A stretch of DNA of 64,000 nucleotides from assembly GCF_031656215.1 (NCBI RefSeq), contig NZ_CP134228.1, positions 1,240,001 to 1,304,000 on the forward strand, in the 5' to 3' direction. Shown here piece by piece: positions 19,993 through 60,096 of the stretch. The stretch is from Mesorhizobium koreense (lineage in GTDB: Bacteria > Pseudomonadota > Alphaproteobacteria > Rhizobiales > Rhizobiaceae). The notes beneath the pieces are model-generated. The model saw only the letters and a program-made list of their open reading frames with translations, was not told the DNA's origin and did not search any database. Numbering within the stretch: position 1 is the first letter of the stretch; every line of letters begins with the position of its first letter. The position numbers and the translations under genes are program-made.

Positions 19993-20331
19993 TCAGGCAA
20001 TGACGAGATCGACCGCGGAATAAAGCTTCTTCAAATTGGGTAGCGACTTCGACTGCCAGGGGATACGGGTCGATCCCTTGACGGTCAGTCCGACATCCAT
20101 CTGCTTGCGGATTTCGATGGTGAACCGCGCCAGGAGATTGATGCCGGAACTGTTGAGGAATTCAAGCTCGGTCAGGTCGAGCACAATCGTCTTCGGCTTC
20201 GCCGCCAGCACGCCGTTCATCAGGTCGAGGACCGGCGCATACGCTTCCGTGCCCGAGAGACGCATCGTGCCTTCGTAGTGGATCTCGGCGCCCTCGCTCC
20301 AGACGCGGTACTCGTTGGTCTTGATTTCCAT
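19993..20331 (-). CDS. STAS-like regulator (slr1659-type), 112 aa
   Basis: The fold pattern is STAS-like: a beta strand (PKTIVLDLTELEFLNSSGIN) ending in a Ser-Ser-Gly turn, then a helix LLARFTIEIRKQMDVG. In anti-sigma antagonists the Ser of this turn is the phosphorylation site used in partner switching. The protein resembles the family named after cyanobacterial slr1659. It is the last gene of the minus-strand signalling operon, 37 bp after the ATPase-like gene that probably phosphorylates it. Phosphatase partners would be the PP2C proteins nearby. Confidence 0.75.
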   Translation of the reverse strand: MEIKTNEYRVWSEGAEIHYEGTMRLSGTEAYAPVLDLMNGVLAAKPKTIVLDLTELEFLNSSGINLLARFTIEIRKQMDVGLTVKGSTRIPWQSKSLPNLKKLYSAVDLVIA

Positions 20332-20368
20332 GGCTTGCTATTGGCTCCGTCACAAATTCTTCTGGGCG

Positions 20369-20923
20369 TCAGGAAAGATCAAGGGCGGCAAATGTATCGA
20401 GACCGATAGACCCGCCCGCTCCAGCGTCCGCGTCGTGGAATATCCAGCCCAAACGCGCGCCATAGTCGTTCATCAAGGTCAAAAGACCAAGCCCGGATCC
20501 GCTGGCCCCCGCATCGGCTGCATTGGCCTCGATGCGGGCGATCAGCAATTCGCCGGGATCGCGCGCCGTCAGTTCCGCAAGCATATCCTGGAAGCGCCGC
20601 GCGGTTCCCGGGCTGATCGCGTTGACGATCTTGACTTCGAAGAGATCGCCGTCGAGCGAGCTCTCAATGATTATATCGCCCGGCTCCCCGAACTTGACCG
20701 CATTTTCCAGAAGCTCGTTGACCAGATAGCCGATGCCGTGGCGTGTCTCTGTATAGGCTTGTTGCGAGGTCGCCCGGCGAAGCGCGAAGAAATCGCCGAG
20801 GAAATCGGCTGTCGCGGCGCAATGGTGCCAGGCAAGGCCAAGCGGGCCGTCGGCTAGTCTGATGCGGGTGGCGAAGGCACCCGGACCATTGCGGAAATCC
20901 GTGCGGCCGAAAGATTTGAGCAT
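20369..20923 (-). CDS. HATPase-like regulator (slr1658-type), 184 aa
   Basis: Residues about 60-180 resemble a GHKL/HATPase fold: an N-box-like YLVNELLENAVKFG with Glu and Asn, and a G-rich segment GASGSGLGLLTLMNDYGARL. The family is related to cyanobacterial slr1658 and to serine kinases of partner-switching systems. It should phosphorylate or bind the STAS-like product encoded directly downstream. The start ATG at 20923 lies 2 bp after the stop of the PP2C gene, so expression is coupled. Some HATPase motifs are shortened, so activity is uncertain. Confidence 0.7.
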   Translation of the reverse strand: MLKSFGRTDFRNGPGAFATRIRLADGPLGLAWHHCAATADFLGDFFALRRATSQQAYTETRHGIGYLVNELLENAVKFGEPGDIIIESSLDGDLFEVKIVNAISPGTARRFQDMLAELTARDPGELLIARIEANAADAGASGSGLGLLTLMNDYGARLGWIFHDADAGAGGSIGLDTFAALDLS

Positions 20924-20925
20924 CG

Positions 20926-23307
20926 CTATCTGTGCCTCATCACGACAAGGGTGATGTCGTCATGGATCTTCTGGGTGCCGATATGTGCTATCACGTCGTC
21001 GATGACGCCGTGCACGATCTCCTCGGCGTTGCCGTGGCCGTGCGCGCGAACGCTGCGGCACAGCCTTTCCGTGCCGAACAGTTCGCCGGCCGGACTTTCC
21101 GCCTCGGTGACGCCGTCGGTATAGAGCACGATGGCGTCGCCCGGGTCGAAACGGATGTCGCGCGTGGCAATAAAAGGCGATATGTCGCCTTCCAGGCCGA
21201 TCGGGAAGCCGAGGTCGATGGTATCGATGCGCTCGAGCTCGCCGTTCCCGCGCAAGATCAGCACCTCTTCATGCTGGCCTGACACGGTCACCTTCCGATC
21301 CTCGTAGTCGAGGAAGGCCAGCGACAGGTGCTTGTCGGAATTTGTGCGCGTGATGTTCTTGTAAATCGCACGGTTGAGCACCTGCAGGAACTGCTTCGGA
21401 TCACCACCGCCCTTTTCCTGAAGGGCCCGCGCCGTGGACTGCACCATCAGCATCAGGACGCCGCTTTCCAGTCCGTGTCCGGTAACGTCGCCGATGCCGA
21501 CCTTGATACGAGCCCCGTCGTGCAGCACGTCATAGTAATCGCCACCCACTTCGTCGGCCGGTTCCATGAAGCCGGCAATCTCGACCTTTGGGATGGCATC
21601 GAGTTCGCTTGCCTTGGGCAGCACCATCATCTGGATCCGCCGAGCGACATCAAGTTCAGCGCCAAGCCTGCGATTCTCGCCTTTCAGCTTCTTGTTGAGC
21701 GCCGAAATCTCCTTGTTGGCGCTTTCCAACTGTGTCGTGCGTGCCTCCACCAGCCGCTCGAGATTCTCGGTATGGTAACTGATTTCCTCTGCCATTCGAT
21801 TGAAGGCCAGCCCCACCGCACCAACCTCGTCACGGGTAGGAATGCTGACGCGCACCGAATAGTCCTTGGCGGCGAAGCGACGTGCCGCATTCGCCAAAGC
21901 GCTCAATCCAGCGGTGATCCGCCCCGATATGGCGAAAACCGCGGCAAACACGACCAGCATACAAACGAGAATGGCCAGGACCTGGTAGGTGAGGATCCTT
22001 TTCGTGGCAGCCGAGATGCTATCCTGGGCGGCGGACAGCGAGGCATAGATCTCCCGTTCCGGGACGACGATACCGACCGACATCGTTTCGCTTGCGACCG
22101 GGCCGCCGCTCCAGAGATTGACTGGCTTCAGGCGTTTCAACGCGACAAGATAGGGGACCTGCGTGCCGTCTTGTTCAAGCGAGATTTCCTGGATGGCACC
22201 GTCGTTGACCGCATCCAACGACAGCGTCTTTATCGCAGGTTGCGTGCTGCTGCGGAGCGAGCGCTCGACACCGGTCACGCCGCTCGAGCGGGCGCCGCTT
22301 GCCGCCTCGATGCCGAGCACCTTCTCGCCGGCCTTGCTGATGGCGAGAATATTGCCGTTCGACATGGTGAGGAACCCGAAGCCACTCTGGGCGACCTTCA
22401 CGCTCTGAACCACCTGCGCAAGCTGGTCGAGCGTGATGTCCGCGCCCACGGTGCCGGCAATATCGGAGCGATCCTTCGTGAAGAGCGGATGAAAAAGGCT
22501 GACAATGAGCTTGCCGGTTATTGCGTCGGTGTAAGGCGCCGTCATCGTCAGGTCCCCTTTCACCGGCTCACTTCCGGGAGTCCTGAGCCAGCCCTGCCAA
22601 CTTTCGTAGAGACCGGGAAAAAAGAAATCCCAGAAATTGGCGCTGTTGTGCCCGGGGTAGAGCTTGTCGAAAGTCTGCGCCTGGTCAGTGTAGGGAACCG
22701 TACGGAAGATCGGCCGGCTTTTCGGGCCGATGTAATACATCTGCTGTTTCGGCGCGCCGGTCGCCATGAGGCTTGGCGCGAAAAGATCGAGCATGGCGCT
22801 GTCGTCGATTTCTTTTTGCACCGCCGGCAGGGGCCGGTGATCCGCGTCGAGCAGATAGCCCCATACGCTGACGACCGATGCGCTGCCGGGACCGTTTTGT
22901 GCCCATCCGCCCTTTTGGTCGTAGATCAGGGGCGCCTGGGTCGCCGCCGGTCCGGCCAAGGCCGCAGCAAGAGCCTCCCTGCTGTCGGGGCTGTCGATCT
23001 GCGCCTGCATCGAACCGGCGAGAGCATCGACTTCGCCGCGCACGCGATCGAGAACGAGATCCGCCCGCACCGAGGTGGAACCTACATAGGTCTTCAGGAA
23101 CTCCTGCGTCGCGGTCGTCAGCCCGGCACCGACTTCCGAAGTCGCGTCCTTCGACAACCGCTGCACATTCCACAGCGCGAGGCCGCCGCTGAGCAGCAGA
23201 TCGAAGAGAACGGCCGCGCCGACAACCATGATGAACTTGGCCCGGAAGGAACGGGGCGACAGCGTAAACCTGCTATCGGGTCGGGCCTCGAGCGCTTGCG
23301 TCGTCAT
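20926..23307 (-). CDS. Membrane Cache-HAMP-PP2C phosphatase (SiaA/RsbU-like), 793 aa
   Basis: The start is ATG at 23307, overlapping the methyltransferase stop as ATGA. The domain order is: membrane helix (FIMVVGAAVLFDLLLSGGLA), a large periplasmic sensor of about 380 residues with a Cache-like pattern, a second helix (VLAILVCMLVVFAAVFAI), HAMP (LANAARRFAAKDYSVRVSIP), a coiled coil, and a SpoIIE-type PP2C domain with GGDYYDV, IGDVTGHG and the C-terminal DDITLVV metal-binding Asp pair. It likely senses an extracytoplasmic signal and dephosphorylates a STAS protein. The layout matches SiaA of Pseudomonas aeruginosa. Confidence 0.88.
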   Translation of the reverse strand: MTTQALEARPDSRFTLSPRSFRAKFIMVVGAAVLFDLLLSGGLALWNVQRLSKDATSEVGAGLTTATQEFLKTYVGSTSVRADLVLDRVRGEVDALAGSMQAQIDSPDSREALAAALAGPAATQAPLIYDQKGGWAQNGPGSASVVSVWGYLLDADHRPLPAVQKEIDDSAMLDLFAPSLMATGAPKQQMYYIGPKSRPIFRTVPYTDQAQTFDKLYPGHNSANFWDFFFPGLYESWQGWLRTPGSEPVKGDLTMTAPYTDAITGKLIVSLFHPLFTKDRSDIAGTVGADITLDQLAQVVQSVKVAQSGFGFLTMSNGNILAISKAGEKVLGIEAASGARSSGVTGVERSLRSSTQPAIKTLSLDAVNDGAIQEISLEQDGTQVPYLVALKRLKPVNLWSGGPVASETMSVGIVVPEREIYASLSAAQDSISAATKRILTYQVLAILVCMLVVFAAVFAISGRITAGLSALANAARRFAAKDYSVRVSIPTRDEVGAVGLAFNRMAEEISYHTENLERLVEARTTQLESANKEISALNKKLKGENRRLGAELDVARRIQMMVLPKASELDAIPKVEIAGFMEPADEVGGDYYDVLHDGARIKVGIGDVTGHGLESGVLMLMVQSTARALQEKGGGDPKQFLQVLNRAIYKNITRTNSDKHLSLAFLDYEDRKVTVSGQHEEVLILRGNGELERIDTIDLGFPIGLEGDISPFIATRDIRFDPGDAIVLYTDGVTEAESPAGELFGTERLCRSVRAHGHGNAEEIVHGVIDDVIAHIGTQKIHDDITLVVMRHR

Positions 23308-24479
23308 TGCGGCTTGCGCCCCGACGCAACCCATATCGGCCAGCCGGCATAGCCTTTCGGGTGTGTCGCCGCGAAGATGTGATCCTGGAAGCCCTGCCGC
23401 AAGCGTGCATTGAAGGCTTCGTCGTCTCCGCGTTGGACCGACATCTGGCCGGCATAGACGTTTTCCCAGGATTGTATGATGTCCGCGAAATCCTGTGGAT
23501 CGCCATCCACATTGGTCACCATGAACGATTCCATACGAACTTCGTCGAAGCCGGCATCGAGAAGATATCGTCGGCTTTTCGGGCCGAGCTCCACGTCCAT
23601 GCCGAAATGTGCAAACAGCTTGGCGACTTCGGTATAGGTCCACTGGATGCTTTCGGCGCGTGGTTCTCCCAGGCAGTGGGAGTTCTTTTCGTTGGTGACA
23701 TAAACCCGACCGCCCGGTTTGCAGATGCGGTAGAGCTCGCGCAGGATCAGTTCCGGGCGGTCGAATATTTGCAGCGAATGCCGGCAGGTGACGAGGTCGA
23801 ACTGGTCGTCTTCCAAAAGCATATCGGAAGCGTCGCCATAGACATATTCGATACCCTGGATGCCGAAGTCGCCCGCGACCTTTCGGGCGTAGTCCAGGCT
23901 CGATCGTGAATGATCGAGCGCGACCAGGCGCGAAGGATCGAACTCCTTGTGAACCAGCACGGCAAAATCGCCGATGCCGCAGCAGATGTCGGCGATCGCC
24001 AGCCCCTTGCGCATGCCGTGACGCGGCAGGATGTCCCGCTCGTGCCGCCAGGTCATCTTCGTCTGGGTGCGAAGGATCGGAATGAAGGAACCTTCTTCCA
24101 GGAAGGTCTGGCCAGGATAAAAATCGCTGTCGTATTCCTCGACGACAATGCGCGGGTTCGCATTCTGCAGGGCGTGAAACTTGCGTGTCGACCAGCCCAC
24201 GACGCTCGACGTGATGATCGAAATCCTAAGTTCCGGCCTTTCCTCGCAAGCCTTTATCAGATCGGTCGCAAGCGTATGGAAAGCCAGATTGTTGAGTCGT
24301 AGCAATCGCTTGACGTTGATATAGAACGTGCCCTTGACGAGTGCGATGGACGTCTTGAGCAGCCGAGTGCAGGCATGCATCTCCTCGACCTGTCGCGGAC
24401 GCATCGAACCGATGATCGAAAACTCCTGATTGTTCTCGTCATAGCGTACGTCGAAGGTTGGATGGGCTATGTCCGACAT
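23304..24479 (-). CDS. STAS-like domain fused to SAM methyltransferase, 391 aa
   Basis: Residues 1-125 read like the slr1659-type STAS domain: GTFYINVKRLLRLNNLAFHT is the strand-turn segment and ITSSVVGWSTRKFHALQNAN aligns by eye with the C-terminal part of the neighbouring STAS protein. The usual turn Ser is replaced (LNNLAF). Residues about 155-300 are a class I methyltransferase: motif I ADICCGIGDFAVLVHKEF, an acidic VALDHS and FDLVTCRHSLQIF. The start ATG at 24479 overlaps the previous stop (TGATG). It may methylate a protein or small molecule under control of the phosphorelay. The substrate is unknown. Confidence 0.7.
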   Translation of the reverse strand: MSDIAHPTFDVRYDENNQEFSIIGSMRPRQVEEMHACTRLLKTSIALVKGTFYINVKRLLRLNNLAFHTLATDLIKACEERPELRISIITSSVVGWSTRKFHALQNANPRIVVEEYDSDFYPGQTFLEEGSFIPILRTQTKMTWRHERDILPRHGMRKGLAIADICCGIGDFAVLVHKEFDPSRLVALDHSRSSLDYARKVAGDFGIQGIEYVYGDASDMLLEDDQFDLVTCRHSLQIFDRPELILRELYRICKPGGRVYVTNEKNSHCLGEPRAESIQWTYTEVAKLFAHFGMDVELGPKSRRYLLDAGFDEVRMESFMVTNVDGDPQDFADIIQSWENVYAGQMSVQRGDDEAFNARLRQGFQDHIFAATHPKGYAGWPIWVASGRKPQ

Positions 24480-24994
24480 CAACTCCCCCCCTCTTCCAGC
24501 GAGAGTTCGACAACCAGCCTTATTGCCTGCGGTATCGCTTCAACGGAGAGGTCCGCGCCGTAGTCGACGGCCAGTTCGAGCAGCCCGACACTGGCCTCCA
24601 TCGGACCGTCTTTGAACAAGGCGGCCCGATATCGGTCCTCGATGTCTTCGCCCGCCAATTTGGCTACGGCATCCTGATAGAAGGCGATTTCAGATTCCCC
24701 GCAGGGAACCGTGAGCTCGATCCTGTCTCTGTCTGCCTGGCGGCAAACGCAGCAGGTAAGGTTGCCTGCCCCGCCATGGACCCGAAAGACGGTCTCCAGC
24801 AACTCGTTGAGCGCGGAGGAAAACAGGTTCGCGTAGAGAAGCGAGTCCGTGCGATTGTGGCTGATCATACGCGCGATGTACGAGGAAAACCGGTCGCAAT
24901 AGGACCAGTTCGAAGCAAAGGCCGCGATGTCGAGATCGATGCTGAGAAGCGGGGCGAAATAGCCGCCCTCGCGTGTCTTCCCCGTCCGAGACAT
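24479..24994 (-). CDS. SiaB/DUF6272-like protein, 171 aa
   Basis: From the ATG at 24994 (MSRTGKTREGGYFAPLLSID) the product has a region DIAAFASNWSYCDRFSSYIA and LFSSALNELLETVFRVHG that resembles SiaB/DUF6272-type proteins, small GHKL-like kinases or kinase relatives. The N-box-like NELLETV is present but the glycine-rich boxes are not obvious. It is first in the minus-strand operon and overlaps the methyltransferase gene. A divergent promoter region of about 190 bp separates it from the PP2C gene at 25187. The family assignment is moderate. Confidence 0.5.
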   Translation of the reverse strand: MSRTGKTREGGYFAPLLSIDLDIAAFASNWSYCDRFSSYIARMISHNRTDSLLYANLFSSALNELLETVFRVHGGAGNLTCCVCRQADRDRIELTVPCGESEIAFYQDAVAKLAGEDIEDRYRAALFKDGPMEASVGLLELAVDYGADLSVEAIPQAIRLVVELSLEEGGS

Positions 24995-25186
24995 ATGCCC
25001 CCCGTCATGATGTGAAGCTTGATGTGCTTCGTTTCCCCCGGCTGTATCGGAGAGCGTGTATTCGCGAACCGGATTTGCCAAGCGGTCCGCCCCTGCAACG
25101 ATATGGAACGGCCGTTGAAACGGCAACGCCGATAGCCGGGCCGATTGCTTGCCAAGCGGTTCGGTGGGGGACTATTACACCTGATA

Positions 25187-26128
25187 ATGAACGAACCCTC
25201 AAAAACAGCCGCTGTTTTTCCCAAGCAGGCGCAGGGCAGTTTTGATCTCGCCGAAGAGCTTGCCGCTGCGAAGGCCGAGATCGCGCGACTGACCGCCGAA
25301 TACGACGATCTTACGCTCCTGTATGAAGCCACCATCGAACATGGCGAGGCAGTTGAAGATCAGTTGGCCGACAGCAACCTAGCGCTTCAGAAGATCCAGG
25401 CGCGGCTGGAGGCGGAGCTTCTCGATGCCGAGCGGTATGTGATGTCCATATTGCCTGCGCCACGCCAGGCAATTCCGGCGACTGAATGGTTACTGGTGCC
25501 TTCCACGGAGCTTGGTGGTGATTCCTTCGGCTATCACGACATCGACGAAGATCACATGGCATTTTACCTGCTCGACGTGTGCGGCCACGGGGTTGGGGCA
25601 GCGCTGCTGTCGGTAGCGGCCATCAAAGTGCTGCAGTCGTCGGCATTGCCGGCTACCGACTTTCGCGAACCGCACAGCGTGCTTTGCGCGCTCAATGATG
25701 CCTTTCCGATGGAAAAGCAGAACGGCATGTTCTTCACCATCTGGTACGGCGTGTACCAGCGCACGACGGCGACGCTTCTCTATGCGAGCGGCGGCCATCC
25801 GCCGGCTATCCATTTGCGCACCGGCGCCGATAGACGCACGACGTCAACGCATCTGATGACGCGGGGCGGGATGGCGATCGGCGCGCTTCCCGACATAAGC
25901 TATCAATCCGAACGCATCGCAATCGAACCTGGCGACCGGTTGCTGCTGATCAGCGACGGAACCTTCGAAGTGTCCGGCCCGAACGGCGACATGCTCGGCA
26001 TCGACGATTTGACAAAGTTCGTGACCATGCAAAGCGATTACCCGCAGGCAGTCCTTGACTGGGTGCGGTCCTTCAATGCGGATGGCCCGCTGCCAGACGA
26101 TTTTTCATTGCTCCGCATTCAGTTCTGA
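25187..26128 (+). CDS. Cytoplasmic PP2C phosphatase with coiled coil, 313 aa
   Basis: The start chosen is ATG at 25187 (MNEPSKTAAVFPKQAQGSFD). Residues about 25-85 form a coiled coil (LAEELAAAKAEIARLTAEYD onwards) and about 95-310 a SpoIIE/RsbU-type PP2C domain with LGGDSFGYHDI, LLDVCGHGVGAALLS and the C-terminal DDFSLLRIQF. The metal-binding aspartates are present, although GDVSG is replaced by LDVCG. Such enzymes dephosphorylate STAS proteins. It is divergent from the minus-strand signalling operon and may share its promoter region. No sensory domain other than the coiled coil is visible. Confidence 0.85.
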   Translation: MNEPSKTAAVFPKQAQGSFDLAEELAAAKAEIARLTAEYDDLTLLYEATIEHGEAVEDQLADSNLALQKIQARLEAELLDAERYVMSILPAPRQAIPATEWLLVPSTELGGDSFGYHDIDEDHMAFYLLDVCGHGVGAALLSVAAIKVLQSSALPATDFREPHSVLCALNDAFPMEKQNGMFFTIWYGVYQRTTATLLYASGGHPPAIHLRTGADRRTTSTHLMTRGGMAIGALPDISYQSERIAIEPGDRLLLISDGTFEVSGPNGDMLGIDDLTKFVTMQSDYPQAVLDWVRSFNADGPLPDDFSLLRIQF

Positions 26129-26555: not shown

Positions 26556-27899
26556 ATGTCGATGCCGTCTCAGGCGCCGCAGGCAGGCGAAATCCCTTCG
26601 CTTCTTCGGGCGCATCCGTTCCTGCGAGCTTTGCCTGAAGTCGCGCTTGACCGGCTGCTCTCGAACGGAGCGAGAAGGGAGGCGGAGATAGGCTCCGTTC
26701 TTCTCAGACAGGGCGAGGCGAGCGATTCCGCTATGCTGTTGCTCGTGGGGGCGGTCGAAGTGGTAGCGGAGACGGTTTCCGGCGAAATCCGCCTTGCCCG
26801 CGTCGATGCGCCGGCCTTACTCGGCGAGATCGGGGTCATTGCAGCTTTGCCGCGAACCGCGACGGTCCGCGCCCTAGAAAACATACGTTATTTGAACATA
26901 GGCAAAGAGGTCTTCAACTCGCTGGCAGACGAGAGCCCACAAATACTGCGCCATGTGGTGGGCCGGCTCGGAGGGCAGCTGAAATCGTTGAATTCGGCGA
27001 TCGGCGTCTATACCGACGCGCTGGTCGCGCTTGAAAAGGACGCGTTTGACCAGGGCATCCTCGACAATCTCAACAACCCTTCGGCCGAACTGGTCAATTT
27101 CGCCGAGACGTTCCGCAGAATGGCGGAGCAGATCGCGCTGAGGCAGCGGCAGCGCGAGGAACTGGCGAGCGCGGCCGCTATCCAGCACGCCATGCTTCCA
27201 GATCCGCTTCCAAGGGATGGCCATGGACGTTTCGATCTTTTCGCTGCGATGCGGCCGGCGCGGGAAGTGGGCGGCGATTTCTACGATGCCTTCCTACTCG
27301 ACGCCAACCGCCTCGTGGTCACCATTGGCGATGTTTCCGGCAAGGGCGTGCCCGCCTCGCTGTTTATGGCCGTTTGCCAGACGACGCTGCGCATGACGCT
27401 GCGCGGGCCGGCATCCGGGATCGGCGAGGCAGTCGAATATGCCAATGAGCTCCTGGAGATGGAGAACTCGGCCTCCATGTTCGCCACCTTCTTCGGCGCG
27501 ATCCTCGATTTGCGGGACGGAAGTCTTTCCTACTGCAATTGCGGGCATAACCCGCCTCTCGTCCAGCGACGCGACGGCACTGTCGAGGCCATGCCGCCCG
27601 ATGGCATCGCGCTTGGTGTTCTATCGCCGGCCGATTGCCGAACGCGGACCACGCGGCTCGACCCGGGCGACCGGCTCCTGCTGTTCACGGACGGCATAAC
27701 GGAAGCGCACGATCCGTTGGGCGAGCTTTTTGAAGACGAGCGGCTTCACGCGACGGTCGCGGGGCGTCGAAATCTCGACGTGCGGCAACTGGTCGAGGGT
27801 ATCTTCGAAGACGTTGACGCTTTTGCCGCTGGCGCGAGCCAACATGACGATCTTACCTGCCTCGTGCTCGCCTATCGTGGCGCTTCTTCAGGTCCGTGA
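26556..27899 (+). CDS. Cyclic-nucleotide-binding PP2C phosphatase, 447 aa
   Basis: Residues about 18-140 are a cyclic-nucleotide-binding domain of the CRP type: VLLRQGEASDSAMLLLVGAV, then DAPALLGEIGVIAALPRTAT with the phosphate-binding LGEIGV...PRTATVRA cassette intact. A helical linker of about 70 residues follows. Residues about 205-440 are a SpoIIE-type PP2C domain with VGGDFYDAF, TIGDVSGKGVPASLFMAV and the final HDDLTCLVL. The protein should couple cAMP or cGMP to dephosphorylation of a STAS protein. The class III cyclase at 57817 is an obvious source of ligand. CAGGAAAAC precedes the ATG. Confidence 0.9.
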   Translation: MSMPSQAPQAGEIPSLLRAHPFLRALPEVALDRLLSNGARREAEIGSVLLRQGEASDSAMLLLVGAVEVVAETVSGEIRLARVDAPALLGEIGVIAALPRTATVRALENIRYLNIGKEVFNSLADESPQILRHVVGRLGGQLKSLNSAIGVYTDALVALEKDAFDQGILDNLNNPSAELVNFAETFRRMAEQIALRQRQREELASAAAIQHAMLPDPLPRDGHGRFDLFAAMRPAREVGGDFYDAFLLDANRLVVTIGDVSGKGVPASLFMAVCQTTLRMTLRGPASGIGEAVEYANELLEMENSASMFATFFGAILDLRDGSLSYCNCGHNPPLVQRRDGTVEAMPPDGIALGVLSPADCRTRTTRLDPGDRLLLFTDGITEAHDPLGELFEDERLHATVAGRRNLDVRQLVEGIFEDVDAFAAGASQHDDLTCLVLAYRGASSGP

Positions 27900-31178: not shown

Positions 31179-31247
31179 CTTCTATTAATGTCAGGCGCTC
31201 CATGGGGGGCGCCCAGGGCTCGTTCACTAGTCTGGGAAGGATGTGCA

Positions 31248-33659: not shown

Positions 33660-33661
33660 AG

Positions 33662-35564: not shown

Positions 35565-35604
35565 CCGACCGATAATCAGAACCGTACCAACCGAGGAAAG
35601 TAAC

Positions 35605-36120: not shown

Positions 36121-36123
36121 GCC

Positions 36124-37623: not shown

Positions 37624-37636
37624 CGCCTGGGTCGAA

Positions 37637-39199: not shown

Positions 39200-39211
39200 C
39201 CGGAGAACGAG

Positions 39212-40481: not shown

Positions 40482-40486
40482 GCCGG

Positions 40487-42031: not shown

Positions 42032-42055
42032 CCGTTCTTCCCCCTGGCCGCCCGA

Positions 42056-44937: not shown

Positions 44938-44939
44938 CT

Positions 44940-50296: not shown

Positions 50297-50297
50297 C

Positions 50298-51770: not shown

Positions 51771-51784
51771 CGTGGGTTCCTCGA

Positions 51785-53122: not shown

Positions 53123-53178
53123 GAAGTGCCTCTTCCCCCGTTGCTTGACCTGGGTCGTGAATTAGCCCCGCGCCACGG

Positions 53179-53685
53179 TCAATCCTGTGGCCCGAGATCG
53201 ACCGAAAGCGATTTCAGGTCTGCCTTTAATTTCAGCTTCTTTTCGCCCTGGAGCGGTATCATCGCACGCCATTTGGCGTCTTGAAAGTCGCGAAAGCCGA
53301 CGACCACCGCCACCAGCACCGTTCCCTCCGCCATTGGCGCCTTCACATGCGCGACACTGCCCGGCTGTACGATGAGTTCCGCCTTGCCCAGCATGGTCGG
53401 GCCCAGCGTTTTTGCATCGTTCTCCCACAATTGGCGGAAGCTGGCGTTCGCGAATGCGGTGTCGCCCGACAATAGATATACGCGAACGACCGTCGGCGAG
53501 GGCTGTCCGTCCGGCTGCGGATTTACAAGTGGCGACGCGGCGACAAGGAAGTCGAGGCCGGCATTTTGCGGCGCCGGCTTGATTTCGATTTCCTTTGCCG
53601 GCGGCTTCTTCTTGCCGAATATGCCGCACGACGCGAGGCCAAACGCCAACGCAACGATCACCAACAACCGGAGAATGCGGACCAT
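53179..53685 (-). CDS. tssJ: T6SS outer-membrane lipoprotein TssJ, 168 aa
   Basis: The N-terminus MVRILRLLVIVALAFGLASC ends in a lipobox (LASC), so Cys20 should be lipidated and the protein anchored to the outer membrane, where it binds the periplasmic part of TssM. The following lysine-rich linker and a beta-sandwich domain (VVRVYLLSGDTAFANASFRQ, then LGKAELIVQPGS) match TssJ. The length is normal. Confidence 0.93.
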   Translation of the reverse strand: MVRILRLLVIVALAFGLASCGIFGKKKPPAKEIEIKPAPQNAGLDFLVAASPLVNPQPDGQPSPTVVRVYLLSGDTAFANASFRQLWENDAKTLGPTMLGKAELIVQPGSVAHVKAPMAEGTVLVAVVVGFRDFQDAKWRAMIPLQGEKKLKLKADLKSLSVDLGPQD

Positions 53686-53722: not shown

Positions 53723-54403
53723 CTATACGCTCTCCGGATATCGTTCTCGCAGATATGACCGCAGCCGGTCGTAGAAAGCCTGCCATTCCCGGTCGCTGAC
53801 GACAGCGCCCGCCACATCGACCCCTTGCGCAAGCGCTGTGACGTCAAGCTCGGGAAAAGACTCGATCAGGCTGACGACGATAGCGTCGGCGGTAGGCGAC
53901 GGCGAGCCGGGAACGAGGGCTGCGGCTCTGTCAGTCGAAGCGGGAGGCGCTTCCTTCCACCAGTCCTCGGCGATCGAAGCGCCGGTGGCCGGCAGCGGCT
54001 CGGCGATTGCCGGTCCGGGCGCGGGACGGCGCTCATTTTCGCCGAACGGCCCATCCTTCACCGGCGCGCTGTCCGGCGCGACCTGGTCCGCGTCTTCGAT
54101 TCCGACCGCGATGACGATGTCGCCCAGCCGGATCAGGTCGCCATGCGCGAGACGCCGGGTGGACTGGCTCCCGATCGGCTGCTCGTTCACAAAGGCGCCG
54201 TTGGTCGAGATATCGGTTACCGTAAAGCCGCCGGGTGCCGCGTCGATGCGGCAATGCTGCTTCGAGATGACCCGGGTCGAATCCGGGATCGTCCATGTGG
54301 CATCGGACGCGCGCCCGATCGTCATGCTGCCTTCCTCAAGCATATGCCGCGCCTCCACGCCTTCGGGAGGCGGCGACATGCGCAAGGAAAGCGTCAATTT
54401 CAC
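53723..54403 (-). CDS. T6SS FHA-domain protein, 226 aa
   Basis: Residues about 20-100 form an FHA phosphothreonine-binding domain: MTIGRASDATWTIPDSTRVI, then SKQHCRIDA and TDISTNGAFVNEQPIG hold the conserved Gly-Arg, Ser-x-x-His and Asn. A Pro/Ala-rich linker is followed by a C-terminal helical region ending in the DREWQAFYDRLRSYLRERYP segment. In known systems the FHA protein is phosphorylated by PpkA and recruits TssL. Here the kinase is at 39735. The start is GTG at 54403. Confidence 0.88.
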   Translation of the reverse strand: MKLTLSLRMSPPPEGVEARHMLEEGSMTIGRASDATWTIPDSTRVISKQHCRIDAAPGGFTVTDISTNGAFVNEQPIGSQSTRRLAHGDLIRLGDIVIAVGIEDADQVAPDSAPVKDGPFGENERRPAPGPAIAEPLPATGASIAEDWWKEAPPASTDRAAALVPGSPSPTADAIVVSLIESFPELDVTALAQGVDVAGAVVSDREWQAFYDRLRSYLRERYPESV

Positions 54404-54457
54404 CGGGAGGGGCCCCTTCCACCCTTGACGTGCGTCCGTTGGACGCGAAACCAGTCG

Positions 54458-55531
54458 TCAGCCGCGCCGCGCGGCAATTCCATAAGTTTGATAGTTCATA
54501 CAGGATCGTTCGTGAAGGCGCACGTGCCAAGGAATCTCCGTTGTGGATGACTTGCGGCGCAACGTTCCCGCAGCCATCGGTCCGTCCGTCAAAAGATGAT
54601 CGAGGATCGCCTCGCCCGACCCTTGATGTGGCCCGCGCTGCGAATGTCCGCCGATCCAGCCCTCGACCGGCGTGACCGCCGGGCTCCAGTCGAACGGAAC
54701 GGTGAGCAGGAGTTCGCCTCCCTTCGCGATGACGCGGTCCATCTCGATCAGTCCGCCGCGTGGATCTCCCAGACAGTCGAGCACGTTCATGCCGACCGTC
54801 AGGGCGAAGGTCTCGTCGGCGAAGGGCAGGCACGATATATCGCAAATCCAGATATCGGCTCGGCCCGCAGGGGTCTGCGGGACGTTGAAGCGCCGCCGAT
54901 CGTAGGTCAGGCCTATCCGGCGGCGGCCGTAGTCGACCTGCCCGCCAATCACGGCCCGGCGTGCCGTCCTTGCCAGTGAGGCACCCAGGTCGATGCCGAG
55001 CACCATGCGTCCGCCACCGGCCACGAGTTCCCGGACGGATCGCCCGGCACCGCAACCGATATCGAGGACAGGGCCTTGAGGCAGGTCGTCGGCCGCCATC
55101 GCCATCACGGAGCGCAGCGCCCGTGCGATCGCGCCGGGGCGGACGGTTACGTTTTCAGGTGGGCACTCGTCGGGGTCGAATTCGCCCCAATGGTCCCAGA
55201 CGTAGGAGGAAAGATGCTGCCGTGCGGAATCGAACATGCTGCCCGGGCCTGCAGCATCGCCGATCAGGCTCTCAACGGCGGGCGGCAAGTCGGTACGGGC
55301 AAGTAGGTAGAAGAGATTGTCCTGGATGTAGCGCCGGACATCGGGAACGAGGATCGGCAATCCGTCGATCACGGGATATTCCGCCCCGCAATTGCCGCAG
55401 CGGATGATGCCTGAAATGACATCGTCGCTCTGCTGCTCCTCGACCGTCGCCACCTCGAGCCGGATCGTTTCCTCTCGCATGCGGCAATTCGGGCAGACAG
55501 GTCGAAGCGAATTGAAAATCTTTATGAGCAT
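54458..55531 (-). CDS. SAM methyltransferase with N-terminal zinc ribbon, 357 aa
   Basis: Residues about 12-52 resemble a Trm112-like ribbon: CPNC, then CGNCGAEYPVIDGLPILVPD with four Cys likely to bind zinc. Residues about 150-270 are a class I methyltransferase, with motif I PVLDIGCGAGRSVRELVAGG and an acidic GIDLG that binds SAM. The C-terminal 60 residues may contact substrate. The gene lies between the PAAR gene and the FHA gene in the T6SS operon. Its substrate is unknown; a T6SS protein is possible. Confidence 0.8.
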   Translation of the reverse strand: MLIKIFNSLRPVCPNCRMREETIRLEVATVEEQQSDDVISGIIRCGNCGAEYPVIDGLPILVPDVRRYIQDNLFYLLARTDLPPAVESLIGDAAGPGSMFDSARQHLSSYVWDHWGEFDPDECPPENVTVRPGAIARALRSVMAMAADDLPQGPVLDIGCGAGRSVRELVAGGGRMVLGIDLGASLARTARRAVIGGQVDYGRRRIGLTYDRRRFNVPQTPAGRADIWICDISCLPFADETFALTVGMNVLDCLGDPRGGLIEMDRVIAKGGELLLTVPFDWSPAVTPVEGWIGGHSQRGPHQGSGEAILDHLLTDGPMAAGTLRRKSSTTEIPWHVRLHERSCMNYQTYGIAARRG

Positions 55532-55651: not shown

Positions 55652-56032
55652 TTATCCGCCGATGATGACCGTCGGGCATCCCGGCGGCAGGATTTTGCCC
55701 GTCGGGCTCGGAATGGGCGCCACGCAACTGGGATGCATTGTCGGGTCGCCCACGCGTGCAGCCGGCATCTTGCCGATCAGCACGGTCGCCGAGCCCTTGA
55801 GGATATTGCCCGGCCCGCCGGGAACGCAGCCCGCCAGCATGCAGGGCTGGGACATGTCCATCATCCGTGCCGCAGGCATTTTGCCGATCAGCACCGTCGG
55901 TTCGCCCTTAATGATCGTAAGCGGCATCGCAGGATGCGGCGTGGGCGTCGGCGTGGGCGCGGCCGGATGGATCGGCGCATGGCAATGCGGCGCGTCCTGA
56001 AGAATCTTATCGCCCAAGCGAGCCGCGTTCAT
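55652..56032 (-). CDS. PAAR-domain spike tip, 126 aa
   Basis: The protein has PAAR-type repeats: AARLGDKILQDAPHCH at the start, GNILKGSATVLIGKMPAARV in the middle, DPTMHPSC and the C-terminal GKILPPGCPTVIIGG. The conserved His and Cys residues bind zinc and sharpen the VgrG tip. No effector domain follows, so it is a plain tip. It overlaps the upstream gene by 26 bp. Confidence 0.9.
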   Translation of the reverse strand: MNAARLGDKILQDAPHCHAPIHPAAPTPTPTPHPAMPLTIIKGEPTVLIGKMPAARMMDMSQPCMLAGCVPGGPGNILKGSATVLIGKMPAARVGDPTMHPSCVAPIPSPTGKILPPGCPTVIIGG

Positions 56033-57134
56033 GCGCAGCCTCCCCCGTACCCTGTGGAACGCCCATATTCTTTGTCAGGCGTAATATATTCCAATTTGCT
56101 TCGCGGCGGTAGGTGATCTCGTCGGCAATGTTGCGGACGAAATGCATCCCGAGGCCACCGACCTCGCGCTCGCCAAGTTCGCCATCGAGCCTGGGCGGCG
56201 GAATGTCGAGCGGATTGAAGGGCGCGCCGTCATCGCGGATGTCGATGCAAAGTCTTTTGCCGGAAAAATCGAGATCGATGTCGATTCGATGGCAGGCGCC
56301 ATCCCGGAACGCGTAGCTGACAAGATTGGTCAGGAGTTCGTCCACCGCCAGGTCGAGTCCCGCGAACGTGTTTTCGTCGATGCCGCAGCGCTCGCGGAAT
56401 TTTTCCATTTGCAAGATCGCCGAGGCGATCTGCCTATTCTCGTTGGTGATCGAGATCGTCTCCGACATACTGTCGTCCGGTCGCCGGCTCCGCCCCTTGA
56501 AAAAGATCAGTCCGAGAACCCCGCCCGGCTGAAGACCAGCACCCGCCGCATCGAGGGCTTCCGCTGCCGACATACCCGCGCCTGCTTCGGCGATCCTGGG
56601 CGAAGGCAGCGTGCCTGCGGCGATCCATAAATATGCGCCTGGCTGAAGCGCAACGGTGGCGCATCCGGTCGTTGGGGAAGTATCGTATCCAAAAGCGGCA
56701 TCTCCCAAGGCTGCGGCGCGAGTCGTTCCGGATTGAAGATCGAGCGTGGCCACCGTAACATCTGTATCCGCGCCGATAAAATGTCGGCAGGCGGCCAACG
56801 CGGCCCCCGGTTCCGTGAGTTCGGCAATGGCGGCACGTAGAAGATGTTTCAGCGAGGCCGCAGCAAGCGCGCCTTCGATACCCCCCGAGGACAAGCTTGC
56901 AACTGCGAAGCAGACGGTAGTGTCCTTTGGCCACCAGGTATCGTAAAAGCAGATACGCTCGCTCGAATCGTGCCGGGTTCCGGCGAATTCGACCTCCCGC
57001 CGAAATGGGAAGGACTGCGGTGGAAGCCCTGCGCTGATCGCACGGGCGAGTGCATCCTCCTTCTGTGCGTCGGACATCCGGTTTTTTGCCTCTTCCGTGC
57101 CGAGGGCCGCAATCGCCTCGGGATGGCATTCCAT
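56007..57134 (-). CDS. PP2C-like (degenerate) plus HATPase fusion, 375 aa
   Basis: Residues about 45-225 resemble a SpoIIE-type PP2C fold (ERICFYDTWWPKDTTVCFAV then ASLSSGGIEGALAAASLKHL) but the Asp of the canonical GDVSG motif is replaced (ASLSSGG), so it may be catalytically inactive. Residues about 230-350 are a HATPase of the anti-sigma kinase type: FAGLDLAVDELLTNLVSYAF with the N-box Glu and Asn, then IRDDGAPFNPLDIPP and GGLGMHFVRNIADEITYRRE. The fusion suggests a kinase whose PP2C-like part is a regulatory module. It starts the minus-strand T6SS operon. Confidence 0.8.
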   Translation of the reverse strand: MECHPEAIAALGTEEAKNRMSDAQKEDALARAISAGLPPQSFPFRREVEFAGTRHDSSERICFYDTWWPKDTTVCFAVASLSSGGIEGALAAASLKHLLRAAIAELTEPGAALAACRHFIGADTDVTVATLDLQSGTTRAAALGDAAFGYDTSPTTGCATVALQPGAYLWIAAGTLPSPRIAEAGAGMSAAEALDAAGAGLQPGGVLGLIFFKGRSRRPDDSMSETISITNENRQIASAILQMEKFRERCGIDENTFAGLDLAVDELLTNLVSYAFRDGACHRIDIDLDFSGKRLCIDIRDDGAPFNPLDIPPPRLDGELGEREVGGLGMHFVRNIADEITYRREANWNILRLTKNMGVPQGTGEAAHERGSLGR

Positions 57135-57706: not shown

Positions 57707-57816
57707 CCGTGGGGCGGCGCCGGCCCATGGCATTCATCCGCGATCAAAGGGCCGATTGACGTCTCGGTAATTCATTCGGGATACCGTGTGCCGGTACCGT
57801 GCTGCGAGGGGGCGCG

Positions 57817-59442
57817 ATGAAACCGTTCTGGCGCTATGCCATCGAAAGGCCGCAATGGCTGGCGGCGATTATGGCGGTGGCTCTCGCTTTGTTGCCGGTG
57901 GCGGTCTGGCTCGACCTGAAAAATCTCTCGGACGCGGGGCTGTCGACCGAAGCACGCACGCTTAACGGCGTGTTCAACGCCATCCGCGGCTATTATGCCG
58001 ACAACATCGTCGCCCGGGTACAGGGCTTCAAAGGGGATAGCGTCGCCGTCCACAATTACATGGATGTCCCCGGAGCGATTCCGATACCCGCCACCCTGTC
58101 GCTGGAACTGGGAAGCATCGTGGGCGAGCATGGCTCCAACATCGGCTATCGTTTCGTGTCCGACTACCCGTTCGCCGGCCGCGCCCCTCATATACTCGAT
58201 GCTTTCGAGAAGAACGCACTCGCCGATTTCCGCGCCAAGCGCGACCCGGACATGATCCGGACCTCGATCTCGGGCTCTATGTTCCAGCGGCAGATCCGCA
58301 TGGCGGTTCCGGTGATCATGAGCCAGCCTTGCGTCACCTGCCACAACTCGCATCCCGACAGCCCGAAGCGAGACTGGAAGGTGGGTGACGTGCGCGCCAT
58401 TCAGGAAATCACCGTTCACCAGACGATCGCCAGCAATCTTTATTCGTTCAAATATCTTCTGGGGTATCTCGCCTTCGGCGGCCTGTTCGCGGTTGCTTTT
58501 TCCCGCGTGCAATGGCGGCAGGCCAAGCATTTTCGCAAGATGAATCACGAACTTGAGGAGGCCAACGGCTTCCTCGCATCCGTTTCCATGAAGATATCGA
58601 AATATCTGTCGCCGCAGATATACAAAAGCATCTTCAGCGGCGAGAAGGACGTGACCATCTCGACGGAGCGCAAGAAGCTCACCATCTTCTTTTCCGACAT
58701 CAAGGACTTCACCGAGATGTCGGAGCACCTTCAGCCGGAAGAACTCACCAGTCTCCTCAACGAGTACTTCACCGAAATGTCGGCCATCGCGCAATCCTAT
58801 GGCGCGACGGTGGACAAGTTCATTGGCGACGCGATCCTCGCCTTCTTCGGCGACCCCGAAACCAAGGGCGCCCGCGAGGATGCCCGCATCTGCCTCGACA
58901 TGGCGATCGCCATGCAGCGCCGTCTTGTCGCCCTGCAAGCTGAATGGCGCCATCGCGGTATACAGAAGCCCTTCGAGGTGCGCATGGGCATCAACACGGG
59001 CTATTGCAATGTCGGGAATTTCGGCAGCCTCGACCGCATGGACTACACGATCGTCGGCGCGGAGGCCAATCTGGCCGCGCGCCTCCAGTCGATCGCGGAG
59101 CCGGGCGGGATCGTGTTGAGTTACGAAACCTACGCGCTCGTCGAGGAAAGCGTAAGGGCACGCGCGCTGCCGGCGATAACGCTCAAAGGAATATCGCGAA
59201 AGATCGTGCCCTATATGGTCGAAGGTATCCACGATTCGCCCGACGCGGGTGCGACCACGATCAGCGAAATCGACAACGGCCTGACGCTTTTCCTCGATAC
59301 GGCCATGCTCGATGGCGAATCTGCCGAGCGTGCCCGCCGGATACTGGAAAGGGCGATCACGGCATTGAGGAGCAAGAGCCCGGCAAGCGAAGCCGATCGT
59401 CAACCAACGCCCGGCTGGAGACCCGCCCGAGGAGGGGATTGA
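57817..59442 (+). CDS. Class III adenylate cyclase with Tll0287-like periplasmic domain, 541 aa
   Basis: The start used is ATG at 57817 (MKPFWRYAIERPQWLAAIMA). The order is a membrane helix, a periplasmic Tll0287-like (DUF3365) domain of about 190 residues containing CVTCH (Cys172, Cys175, His176), a c-type heme-binding motif, a second membrane helix, a coiled coil and a class III cyclase domain (about 275-460). The catalytic residues are present: FFSDIKDF and FIGDAILAFFGD for metals, Lys in DKFIGD, and DYTIVGAEANLAARLQ. Lys and Asp/Thr indicate adenylate rather than guanylate cyclase. A redox or heme signal could control cAMP synthesis. Confidence 0.85.
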   Translation: MKPFWRYAIERPQWLAAIMAVALALLPVAVWLDLKNLSDAGLSTEARTLNGVFNAIRGYYADNIVARVQGFKGDSVAVHNYMDVPGAIPIPATLSLELGSIVGEHGSNIGYRFVSDYPFAGRAPHILDAFEKNALADFRAKRDPDMIRTSISGSMFQRQIRMAVPVIMSQPCVTCHNSHPDSPKRDWKVGDVRAIQEITVHQTIASNLYSFKYLLGYLAFGGLFAVAFSRVQWRQAKHFRKMNHELEEANGFLASVSMKISKYLSPQIYKSIFSGEKDVTISTERKKLTIFFSDIKDFTEMSEHLQPEELTSLLNEYFTEMSAIAQSYGATVDKFIGDAILAFFGDPETKGAREDARICLDMAIAMQRRLVALQAEWRHRGIQKPFEVRMGINTGYCNVGNFGSLDRMDYTIVGAEANLAARLQSIAEPGGIVLSYETYALVEESVRARALPAITLKGISRKIVPYMVEGIHDSPDAGATTISEIDNGLTLFLDTAMLDGESAERARRILERAITALRSKSPASEADRQPTPGWRPARGGD

Positions 59443-59766
59443 GGTTCGCTGTGGCAGGCAAGAAAATCATCTTATCAGCATACTGGATCTTCTTCGATAG
59501 CGGCTGGTACCTTAACGCCATCCAACGCAAGAATTAATCATCGTTGATGGATGATGGATGAAAAGGTAGACCACAGCCGACATCGTGCCCTCGAGCCTGC
59601 CTACCATTAGGCTAGTCGCTCTGCCGGATGTTGCGTGTCTTGCCTCTATGGGGATAAAGGCCGGGTCGTTGGCTGGCACGAATGTGCCCATTGCCGCCGA
59701 CTTTGGTTTGCGCCTCAAGCCGAGATCGTTCAATGTGAAAACGAGACGTATTAGGGCTGACCTGTA
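59443..59766. other. Gene-free stretch before the STAS gene
   Basis: About 320 bp between the cyclase and STAS genes hold no accepted gene. A long minus-strand frame (59512-60183) covers it and the STAS gene but is rejected. GATGGATGATGGATG near 59546-59560 is a short repeat. Confidence 0.4.
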
Positions 59767-60096
59767 ATGGACATCACTGAAAGCCGCCGTGGTGGGATTC
59801 TGGTCGTCGCTCCAATCGGACGGATCGACAGTAACACCTCGCCGGGTTTTGGCAGGCATATGAATGCTGCCATCGACCGTGGAGACATCAATATCGTTGT
59901 TGACATGGCCGGACTTGACTACATCAGCAGTACCGGACTTTCGGTCTTCCTGTCTTCGGCCAAGAAAATAAAGATTGCAGGCGGGAGCATGGCGCTGAGC
60001 GGCCTCAACAGCCGTATTCGTCTGGTATTCGAGATGAGTGGATTCCTGCGCCTCTTTCCCGTCTTTCCCAGCGTTGACGCGGCTACAGCGGGGTAA
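59767..60096 (+). CDS. STAS-domain anti-sigma factor antagonist, 109 aa
   Basis: A canonical single-domain STAS protein: MDITESRRGGILVVAPIGRI at the N-terminus, then DMAGLDYISSTGLSVFLSSA, in which the Ser-Ser-Thr-Gly turn provides the phosphorylation site. It should bind and be phosphorylated by a HATPase kinase and be released by a PP2C phosphatase. Candidate partners in the window are the HATPase at 56007 and the PP2C proteins at 20926, 25187 and 26556. No sigma factor is encoded here. Confidence 0.85.
   Translation: MDITESRRGGILVVAPIGRIDSNTSPGFGRHMNAAIDRGDINIVVDMAGLDYISSTGLSVFLSSAKKIKIAGGSMALSGLNSRIRLVFEMSGFLRLFPVFPSVDAATAG

What the first reader, a model, noticed from the sequence alone, without database searches (positions are those of the whole stretch)
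19993..60096. A partner-switching and cyclic-nucleotide signalling network wrapped around one T6SS
Flanking the T6SS genes I see three PP2C phosphatases (20926, 25187, 26556) plus one degenerate one (56007), at least two HATPase-type proteins (20369, 56007) and a possible third (24479), two STAS proteins (19993, 59767), a STAS-methyltransferase fusion (23304), a Ser/Thr kinase with its FHA protein (39735, 53723) and a class III cyclase (57817). One PP2C (26556) carries a cyclic-nucleotide-binding domain, so the cyclase could set its activity and hence the STAS phosphorylation state. Known T6SS control uses PpkA/PppA/FHA; a SiaA-like or slr1658/1659-like switch linked to cAMP beside a T6SS is not a set-up I know to be described. 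The link is inferred from proximity.
Basis: partly seen in the sequence, partly recalled or inferred. Interest (0 to 1): 0.85.

Follow-up and report, generated by a model that had tools for sequence, protein, structure and literature searches.

The report
Phospho-switch operon welded to a T6SS
Next to a bacterial toxin-injection machine (type VI secretion) lies a set of on/off protein switches that also sits beside such machines in several other bacteria, which suggests, but does not prove, that the switches tell the machine when to fire.

Summary
The genes are real. Profile searches confirm two STAS proteins, an slr1659-like STAS-methyltransferase fusion, three HATPase-type proteins, three SpoIIE-type PP2Cs (the only three found in the genome), a PpkA-like kinase, an FHA protein and a class III cyclase around one T6SS. 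A five-gene operon (HATb, STAS-methyltransferase, sensor PP2C, HATa, STASa) plus PP2Cb and a HATPase/STAS pair lies in one T6SS locus in six of seven rhizobial genomes that carry P2HAT, in two block orders, and beside a different T6SS in eight Roseibium-type genomes (three near-identical). In a sister clade the operon mostly has a GGDEF-EAL protein upstream, and no T6SS was seen beside it. TagF was not found in the seven rhizobial loci. The cyclic-nucleotide half fails: the 57799 cyclase is a wandering gene, found mostly in genomes without VipB and absent from this place in a same-genus genome; the cNMP-PP2C was found in two genomes of that genus only. One HATPase lacks the N-box Asn in all 81 rows and looks like a dead kinase. 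I read this as a SiaABC-like module re-plugged onto a T6SS: a new variant of a known kind. Control of secretion is inferred.

The parts
19993..20331 (-). STASa, slr1659-superfamily STAS with LNSSG phospho-acceptor motif
   Evidence: NF047705 E 2.4e-40; LNSSG in 80 of 80 aligned rows
20369..20923 (-). HATa, slr1658-superfamily HATPase (SiaB-like kinase candidate), N-box and G-box kept
   Evidence: NF047703 E 2.3e-48; N-box Asn 80 of 80, SGLG glycines 79 of 80
20926..23250 (-). PP2Ca, sensor (dCache-like)-HAMP-SpoIIE phosphatase, SiaA-like architecture
   Evidence: PF07228 7.6e-40, PF00672 1.4e-11, PF02743 2.6e-6 below cut-off; NF038263 1e-36 below cut-off; start from relatives
23304..24482 (-). 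STASMT, slr1659-like STAS fused to SAM methyltransferase; Asn where SiaC/STASa have the phospho-acceptor
24479..25015 (-). HATb, divergent slr1658-like HATPase without the N-box Asn: predicted pseudokinase partner
   Evidence: NF047703 4e-13; hhalign to HATa 95%; N-box Asn in 0 of 81 rows
25187..26128 (+). PP2Cb, soluble SpoIIE PP2C, divergent from the core operon; marks the T6SS-linked form
   Evidence: PF07228 5.2e-38
26556..27899 (+). PP2Cc, cNMP-binding SpoIIE PP2C; found full-length only in this genus
   Evidence: PF07228 2.8e-46, PF00027 2.6e-13; 2 of 247 genomes, window and G758
28431..31178 (+). tssH (ClpV-like; named from domains and recall)
   Evidence: AAA_2 and ClpB_D2-small; next to STASc in relatives
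31245..31724 (+). hcp
   Evidence: PF05638 4.8e-37
31782..33659 (+). vgrG-like (named by recall, from sequence and position; not scanned)
   Evidence: sequence; syntenic in relatives
33650..34273 (+). DUF6931 protein
   Evidence: PF22011 4.7e-47
34446..39709 (+). tssA, tssB, tssC, second tssC, tssE
   Evidence: ImpA_N, VipA, VipB, GPW_gp25
39735..40490 (-). ppkA-like Ser/Thr kinase (start approximate)
   Evidence: PF00069 5e-22
40487..42031 (-). MT1, methyltransferase with regulatory domain
   Evidence: PF10119 4.8e-24; conserved in T6SS loci
42056..53685 (-). tssG, tssF, tssM, second IcmF_N protein, tssL (DotU-OmpA), tssK, tssJ
53723..54403 (-). FHA-domain protein
   Evidence: PF00498 2.9e-17
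54458..55531 (-). MT2, methyltransferase
   Evidence: PF08241 2.3e-10; conserved in T6SS loci
55652..56032 (-). PAAR protein
   Evidence: PF05488 1.9e-14
56007..57134 (-). P2HAT: RsbW-like HATPase with a weakly PP2C-like degenerate N-terminal domain
   Evidence: PF13581 3.4e-22; full-length in 7 genomes, five aligned; hhalign to PP2Cb 25%
57799..59442 (+). Tll0287-like sensor + class III cyclase; lies between P2HAT and STASc only in this one of seven loci, not part of the conserved set
59767..60096 (+). STASc, SpoIIAA-like STAS, partner candidate of P2HAT
   Evidence: PF01740 2.7e-20, TIGR00377 1.7e-22; YISSTGL identical in the five loci aligned

Best explanation
This is a SiaABC-like partner-switching module that has been attached, together with a second RsbW/SpoIIAA-like switch, to a T6SS and most likely gates that T6SS after translation. 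Proposed working: PP2Ca senses a periplasmic ligand and removes phosphate from STASa, which HATa puts on. The free STASa changes partner and thereby sets the activity of the STAS-methyltransferase, which is held by the pseudokinase HATb and in this protein lacks the usual phospho-acceptor. In parallel, PP2Cb (and in this genus the cNMP-binding PP2Cc) dephosphorylates STASc. STASc then binds P2HAT and makes it release what it holds back. PpkA and FHA act as in other T6SSs, and P2HAT/STASc take the place of TagF-PppA, of which TagF was not found here. Shown: gene content, motifs, conserved linkage, no TagF match in the locus. Inferred: every biochemical step and the effect on secretion.
For: (1) Identical order of all shared query genes in five genomes: PP2Cb, HATb, STASMT, PP2Ca, HATa, STASa, ppkA, MT1, tssG-K, FHA, MT2, PAAR, P2HAT, STASc, tssH, hcp ... 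tssE. The window holds the same blocks in another order, so linkage outlived a rearrangement. (2) Full-length P2HAT in 7 of 247 family genomes, and all 7 are inside a T6SS. (3) Second, different T6SS: 8 Roseibium-type loci with core operon, PP2Cb, HATPase and STAS next to tss genes; the 5 relatives without PP2Cb (L028, L032, L051, L053, L176) have none of these there. (4) Among 80 named loci, T6SS genes in 11 of 17 with PP2Cb and 0 of 63 without; among the 50 genomes tested for VipB, of those that own one 11 of 12 PP2Cb-type versus 0 of 24 others have T6SS genes by the operon. (5) L022, L171 and L174 hold a P2HAT-like HATPase, STASc and PP2Cb side by side, supporting PP2Cb as the STASc phosphatase. 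(6) TagF match in 0 of 7 P2HAT-bearing loci, against 8 of 8 Roseibium-type loci and 4 of 5 other double-TssC clusters. (7) STASa and HATa keep the catalytic motifs in 79-80 of 80 rows; HATb has the N-box Asn in 0 of 81, STASMT has Asn or Ala at the acceptor position in 79 of 81.
Against: The PP2Cb-type operon also occurs in genomes where no VipB was found (L003, L006, L007, L011, L022), so it is not dedicated to T6SS. In same-genus G758 the operon lies on contigs apart from the T6SS (the assembly breaks inside STASMT). The linked loci are few and related: three of the eight Roseibium-type rows are over 99% identical, three rhizobial ones share a genus code (g496), and the tree allows perhaps two independent origins (6 changes of the label). 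Roseibium-type loci keep TagF as well. STASMT has Thr at the neighbouring position in 28 of 81 rows and Ser at the acceptor in 2, so phosphorylation of some family members is not excluded. No target of P2HAT or of the methyltransferase is known. Proximity is not function.
Confidence: 0.52

Rival explanations
1. Hitch-hiker: the switch operon is a free-standing surface or nutrient-sensing module that happens to be carried in the same genomic island as the T6SS and controls something else (biofilm, transport, c-di-GMP).
For: The core operon is far wider than the T6SS link: 57 of 80 named loci have a GGDEF-EAL relative just upstream on the same strand and no T6SS genes in the fetched flank (domains scanned in one, L033). 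PP2Cb-type genomes without any VipB hit exist. G758 carries both, apart. The T6SS blocks are richer in GC (0.62-0.66) than the core (0.59-0.61).
Against: STASc and P2HAT are inside the T6SS block in 7 of 7 genomes; linkage to a second, different T6SS; PP2Cb, HATPase, STASc and T6SS are present (8) or absent (5) together in Roseibium-type loci; linkage kept in two block orders.
Confidence: 0.25
2. Transcriptional control: P2HAT is a true anti-sigma factor and the STASc/PP2C switch frees a sigma factor that transcribes the T6SS genes, rather than acting on the apparatus.
For: P2HAT matches RsbW models (NF003144 6.9e-8, below cut-off) and STASc matches anti-sigma antagonists; its HATPase motifs are intact in the five sequences aligned.
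Against: No sigma-factor family came up among the window ORFs scanned; in the SiaABC switch the output is an enzyme, not a sigma factor (PMC7647112, PMC8457831, passages).
Confidence: 0.13
3. One reading: a neighbouring cyclase makes cAMP or cGMP, which sets the cNMP-PP2C and so the STAS phosphorylation state and the T6SS.
For: The cNMP domain is a good match (PF00027 2.6e-13). PP2Cc sits next to tssH in both genomes that have it. A cyclase that I read as CHASE2-type follows STASc-sol-FecR in both. Cyclic nucleotides diffuse, so linkage is not required.
Against: The 57799 cyclase is not T6SS-linked in 18 of 18 other neighbourhoods and is absent between P2HAT and STASc in all six other loci. 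No cNMP-domain match better than E 0.6 in the six other T6SS stretches searched (for G758 only contig C43, its PP2Cc being on C39). In G877 the PP2C beside tssE carries a receiver-like domain instead (read by eye). Two other genomes of the genus gave no match to either gene (G852, G915), but they have no VipB either.
Confidence: 0.1

Closest known systems
SiaABCD of Pseudomonas aeruginosa (PMC7647112: abstract and passages seen; PMC8457831: passages seen)
   Same: Membrane sensor PP2C, HATPase-type kinase and STAS protein in one operon; PP2Ca matches the SiaA model over HAMP and PP2C; in most of the sister clade a GGDEF-EAL protein lies just upstream, as the diguanylate cyclase SiaD belongs to siaABCD
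   Different: Kinase and STAS belong to the slr1658/slr1659 superfamilies, SiaA and SiaB matches are below their cut-offs, an added HATb/STAS-methyltransferase pair, and in the T6SS-linked form no diguanylate cyclase but PP2Cb and a T6SS
slr1658/slr1659 superfamily regulators (NCBIfam NF047703, NF047705)
   Same: HATa and STASa pass both models' cut-offs
   Different: Second pair (HATb, STAS part of STASMT) is far below the cut-offs; HATb lacks the N-box Asn
Threonine phosphorylation pathway of T6SS, PpkA/Fha/TagF-PppA of Agrobacterium tumefaciens (PMC3953482, passages seen)
   Same: Kinase and FHA genes in the T6SS cluster
   Different: No TagF match in the seven rhizobial loci; P2HAT/STASc present instead. 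PppA was not searched for as such
RsbW/RsbV-SpoIIE type partner switches (recalled)
   Same: P2HAT/STASc with PP2Cb is a kinase-antagonist-phosphatase set
   Different: Extra degenerate N-terminal domain in P2HAT; T6SS genes beside it; no sigma factor seen
HsbR/HsbA switch of P. aeruginosa (PMC5085249 seen in a search listing only; wiring recalled)
   Same: A partner switch that can touch secretion through Gac/Rsm
   Different: Indirect, not encoded in a T6SS locus (recalled)

Membership tests
Partner-switching system | STAS protein with phosphorylatable Ser/Thr | tested here: met
   STASa LNSSG in 80 of 80 rows; STASc YISSTGL in five loci; not met for STASMT of the window (NNLA)
Partner-switching system | GHKL-type kinase with N-box and G-box | tested here: met
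   HATa and P2HAT yes; HATb not
Partner-switching system | PP2C with the catalytic Asp motifs | tested here: met
   SpoIIE model matched over nearly its full length in PP2Ca, b, c; Asp motifs read by eye
Partner-switching system | Phosphorylation-dependent change of partner | not testable with these tools
   needs biochemistry
SiaABCD | SiaA equivalog score above cut-off | tested here: not met
   126.8 bits against 700
SiaABCD | SiaB family kinase above cut-off | tested here: not met
   18 bits against 85
SiaABCD | Diguanylate cyclase in the operon | tested here: not met
   no relative of the L033 GGDEF-EAL protein beside the operon in the 11 T6SS-linked named loci or, by the same query, in the window; present in 57 of 80 loci
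slr1658/slr1659 superfamilies | score above curated cut-off | tested here: met
   HATa 164 and STASa 137.3 bits against 100; HATb 49.2 and STASMT 36.6 are below
T6SS Thr-phosphorylation pathway | PpkA-like kinase and FHA protein in the cluster | tested here: met
T6SS Thr-phosphorylation pathway | TagF (or TagF-PppA) in the cluster | tested here: not met
   the one TagF match of the window genome is at its second T6SS, C1:2051517
T6SS | core tss genes present | tested here: met
   tssA, B, C, E, F, G, H, J, K, L, M, hcp and PAAR by Pfam; vgrG by recall and synteny only

The most novel reading that the evidence does not exclude
A T6SS whose brake is a partner switch with a methylation output. 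In these rhizobia P2HAT/STASc replace TagF-PppA, and the STAS-methyltransferase (with MT1 and MT2 of the same locus) modifies a T6SS or regulatory protein when the membrane PP2C senses its ligand. The same five-gene sensor core drives c-di-GMP turnover in sister lineages, so one input module has swapped outputs between c-di-GMP and secretion.
Probability: 0.2. Interest if true: 0.85.

Novelty: new variant of a known kind. Interest (0 to 1): 0.62.

Why it matters
T6SS firing is known to be set by threonine phosphorylation through PpkA, Fha, PppA and TagF. If partner switching gates a T6SS, it would add another post-translational route, show how one sensor module can be moved between c-di-GMP and secretion outputs, and give a first lead to what STAS-methyltransferases do. 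Five genomes with one gene order make it directly testable in soil bacteria.

Tried and rejected
Rejected: the 57799 cyclase as a conserved part. Not supported: a simple island integrated at tRNA-Ser 18476; no second copy of the last 15, 20 or 25 bases of the tRNA was found within 104 kb (up to 1-2 mismatches), so island ends are unknown. Rejected: that P2HAT/STASc are general T6SS parts; seven other T6SS clusters in operon-bearing genomes and the double-TssC cluster of G281 and second T6SS of the window genome show no match to them. A hit to the cyclase (28%) lies by one of these, in G302, and was not followed. Weak: PP2C nature of the P2HAT N-terminus.

Weaknesses of counts: one search kept the best 80 of 231 relatives, and 15 of those 80 loci are shorter than full length, with less than 10 kb on at least one side. 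The table covers 94 loci, of which L169, L170, L172 and L173 have the contig lengths of L028, L038, L066 and L064 and were taken as duplicates and dropped. L171 and L174 fail my distance rule for PP2Cb but carry it, and were labelled PP2Cb in the tree. L031 and L073 failed my distance/strand rule for the GGDEF-EAL protein although it lies near. The tree is a quick search with 29 of 88 inner branches open. My tssB query was cut one base out of frame and carried three X, so tssB rows in the blast tables are wrong-frame shadows and carry no weight. In G299 about 9 kb between tssM and tssF has no match to my queries. First looks of the genome search score only some candidates (5-8 in several calls), so absences there are soft. 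Presence of VipB was tested for 50 of the 80 named loci. G068, G135, G420, G629 and G706 were not tested for T6SS elsewhere. Of the 18 cyclase neighbourhoods, at least G753 and G889 have short flanks on one side. That G788, G898 and G954 are G299, G306 and G310 is inferred from equal or nearly equal coordinates.


Full report
What is there. The window is bases 1240001-1304000 of a single-contig 5.04 Mb genome. Its GTDB-style family f1 also holds G229, whose contig has the length of that of Mesorhizobium sp. NFR06 (539,439 bases), so I place it among the Rhizobiaceae. The T6SS at 28.4-56.0 kb has all core genes by Pfam except vgrG, which I name by recall and synteny. It has two TssC genes, a second IcmF_N protein, a PpkA-like kinase, an FHA protein and two methyltransferases (MT1, MT2). 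Left of it lies a tightly packed operon on the minus strand: HATb (24479-25015), STASMT (23304-24482), PP2Ca (20926-23250), HATa (20369-20923), STASa (19993-20331). PP2Cb (25187-26128) is divergent from it and PP2Cc, with a cNMP-binding domain, lies between PP2Cb and tssH. Right of the T6SS are P2HAT (56007), a class III cyclase (57799) and STASc (59767).

The core operon has a life of its own. A scan of the GTDB species genomes with STASMT gave 231 relatives, of which the best 80 were kept. In 79 of these 80 all five core genes were matched; the other, L003, runs off its contig. In 57 of the 80 a relative of the L033 GGDEF-EAL protein lies just upstream on the same strand, and none of these has T6SS genes in the fetched flank. 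In 17 of 80 PP2Cb lies divergently upstream, and 11 of these 17 have T6SS genes in the flank; of the 63 without PP2Cb, none has. A quick tree of 91 STASMT proteins splits off, with 97% SH-aLRT support, 63 rows without PP2Cb from 28 rows that hold all PP2Cb loci plus five Roseibium-type loci that lack it. In 50 of the 80 genomes I looked for VipB: 12 of 17 PP2Cb-type and 24 of 33 others own one, yet 11 of 12 against 0 of 24 have T6SS genes by the operon. PP2Cb-type genomes with no VipB hit exist (L003, L006, L007, L011, L022), so the module is not tied to T6SS.

The linkage with this T6SS. The window has the same blocks in another order. G828 and G877 were found by P2HAT alone, without regard to the operon or the T6SS. 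Full-length P2HAT occurs in 7 of 247 family genomes, all 7 within this T6SS (by equal or nearly equal coordinates three of the seven are second handles of the three genomes named above). In the seventh, same-genus G758, the core operon is on other contigs.

A second T6SS. In eight Roseibium/Labrenzia-type loci (three of them over 99% identical in STASMT) the same operon and PP2Cb adjoin a different T6SS (TssF and TssG only 22-28% identical to those of the window) with a stand-alone RsbW-like HATPase (PF13581 2e-20 in L080) and a STAS protein between. Five relatives without PP2Cb there (L028, L032, L051, L053, L176) show no STASc, HATPase or T6SS match at that place. Seven other T6SS clusters in operon-bearing genomes show no switch gene, nor does the second T6SS of the window genome.

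TagF. Among 18 + 2 genomes searched, TagF lies in the T6SS cluster of all eight Roseibium-type loci and of four of five other double-TssC clusters. No match lies in any of the seven P2HAT-type loci; five of those genomes carry one at another place and two (G306, G877) gave none. This fits P2HAT/STASc standing in for TagF-PppA in the rhizobial form, though the Roseibium type has both. PppA itself was not searched for.

Which parts can work. STASa has LNSSG in 80 of 80 rows; HATa has the N-box Asn in 80 of 80 and the SGLG glycines in 79 of 80. HATb has the N-box Asn in 0 of 81 rows (Val, Thr, Ile and others instead) and keeps a glycine at one G-box place in only 21. At the place of the first Ser of LNSSG, STASMT has Asn in 75, Ala in 4 and Ser in 2 of 81; at the next place it has Thr in 28, Leu in the window. 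Profile comparison still relates HATb to HATa (95%) and the STAS part of STASMT to STASa (92%). In SiaC, Thr68 in LNTSS is phosphorylated by SiaB and dephosphorylated by SiaA (PMC7647112, abstract and passages), and phosphorylation prevents binding to SiaD (PMC8457831, passages). Placing SiaC's LNTSS on LNSSG by eye, the methyltransferase of the window carries a STAS domain without the acceptor. I infer that it is controlled by binding rather than by phosphate, with the caution that other family members have a Thr one place on. P2HAT and STASc keep their motifs in the five loci aligned, and in L022, L171 and L174 a P2HAT-like HATPase, STASc and PP2Cb are neighbours, so I pair PP2Cb with STASc.

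The cyclic nucleotides. The 57799 cyclase is found in 39 of 247 family genomes, some matching only in the catalytic part. In 18 of 18 neighbourhoods read outside this genome it has no T6SS, STASc or P2HAT match beside it, and 15 of 17 other carriers tested gave no VipB. G758 carries it at 80% identity elsewhere, with P2HAT and STASc adjacent in its T6SS. It therefore looks like an intruder here. PP2Cc has one other full-length relative, in G758, beside tssH; in G877 a PP2C with a receiver-like domain stands by tssE (by eye). This suggests a slot for a variable input PP2C. A cyclase that I read as CHASE2-type follows STASc, sol and a FecR-like protein in both, in this genome just outside the window (64507-66837; not scanned against Pfam), so a cAMP input in this genus is possible but not shown.

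Literature. Searches for T6SS with partner switching, STAS domain or SpoIIE listed no paper that I could recognise as being on STAS-type control encoded in a T6SS locus; I judged from listings, and from passages of PMC9239204. That paper proposes PP2C-STAS-c-di-GMP links in Campylobacterota and notes eukaryotic-type kinases in T6SS loci of Arcobacter. The library holds only open-licence papers, so absence is soft. PMC3953482 (passages) describes PpkA, Fha and TagF-PppA in Agrobacterium.

Verdict. A real and recurring attachment of a SiaABC-like partner switch to T6SSs, with an added STAS-methyltransferase pair; the cyclic-nucleotide link is local and unproven. New variant of a known kind.

Noticed in passing
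19180-19848 (+): Orphan 222-aa ORF beside STASa without a family match at E 0.001 and not matched at the 80 other core-operon loci; a Cys/His pair recalls deamidase-like folds (recall only). Possible T6SS cargo.
   Followed up: partly
40487-42031 and 54458-55531 (-): Two further methyltransferases (MT1, MT2) are conserved inside all seven P2HAT-type T6SS loci; their targets are unknown.
   Followed up: partly
L033:7585-9399 and 56 other loci: Sister clade of the operon carries a GGDEF-EAL relative upstream: a rhizobial SiaABCD-like system that I did not see described in my searches (listings).
   Followed up: partly
L007:14871-16493, L022:14436-16235: A Na/Pi cotransporter and a Xan_ur permease beside the core operon where there is no T6SS; their C-terminal tails look HATPase-like by eye.
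   Followed up: no
60369-64442 and on to 66837 beyond the window end: TPR/beta-barrel gene, FecR-like protein and CHASE2-like cyclase in a row, conserved after STASc in G758 (the last two named by eye).
   Followed up: partly
G877 contig C15 598512-599735 (L269): PP2C with a receiver-like N-terminus beside tssE, where the window genus has a cNMP-PP2C beside tssH.
   Followed up: partly
16157-17362 (+), tRNA-Ser 18476-18565: Phage-type integrase (named by recall) near a tRNA-Ser; no repeat of the tRNA 3' end within 104 kb.
   Followed up: yes
48488-50296 (-): A second, shorter IcmF_N protein next to tssM, conserved in all seven loci.
   Followed up: no
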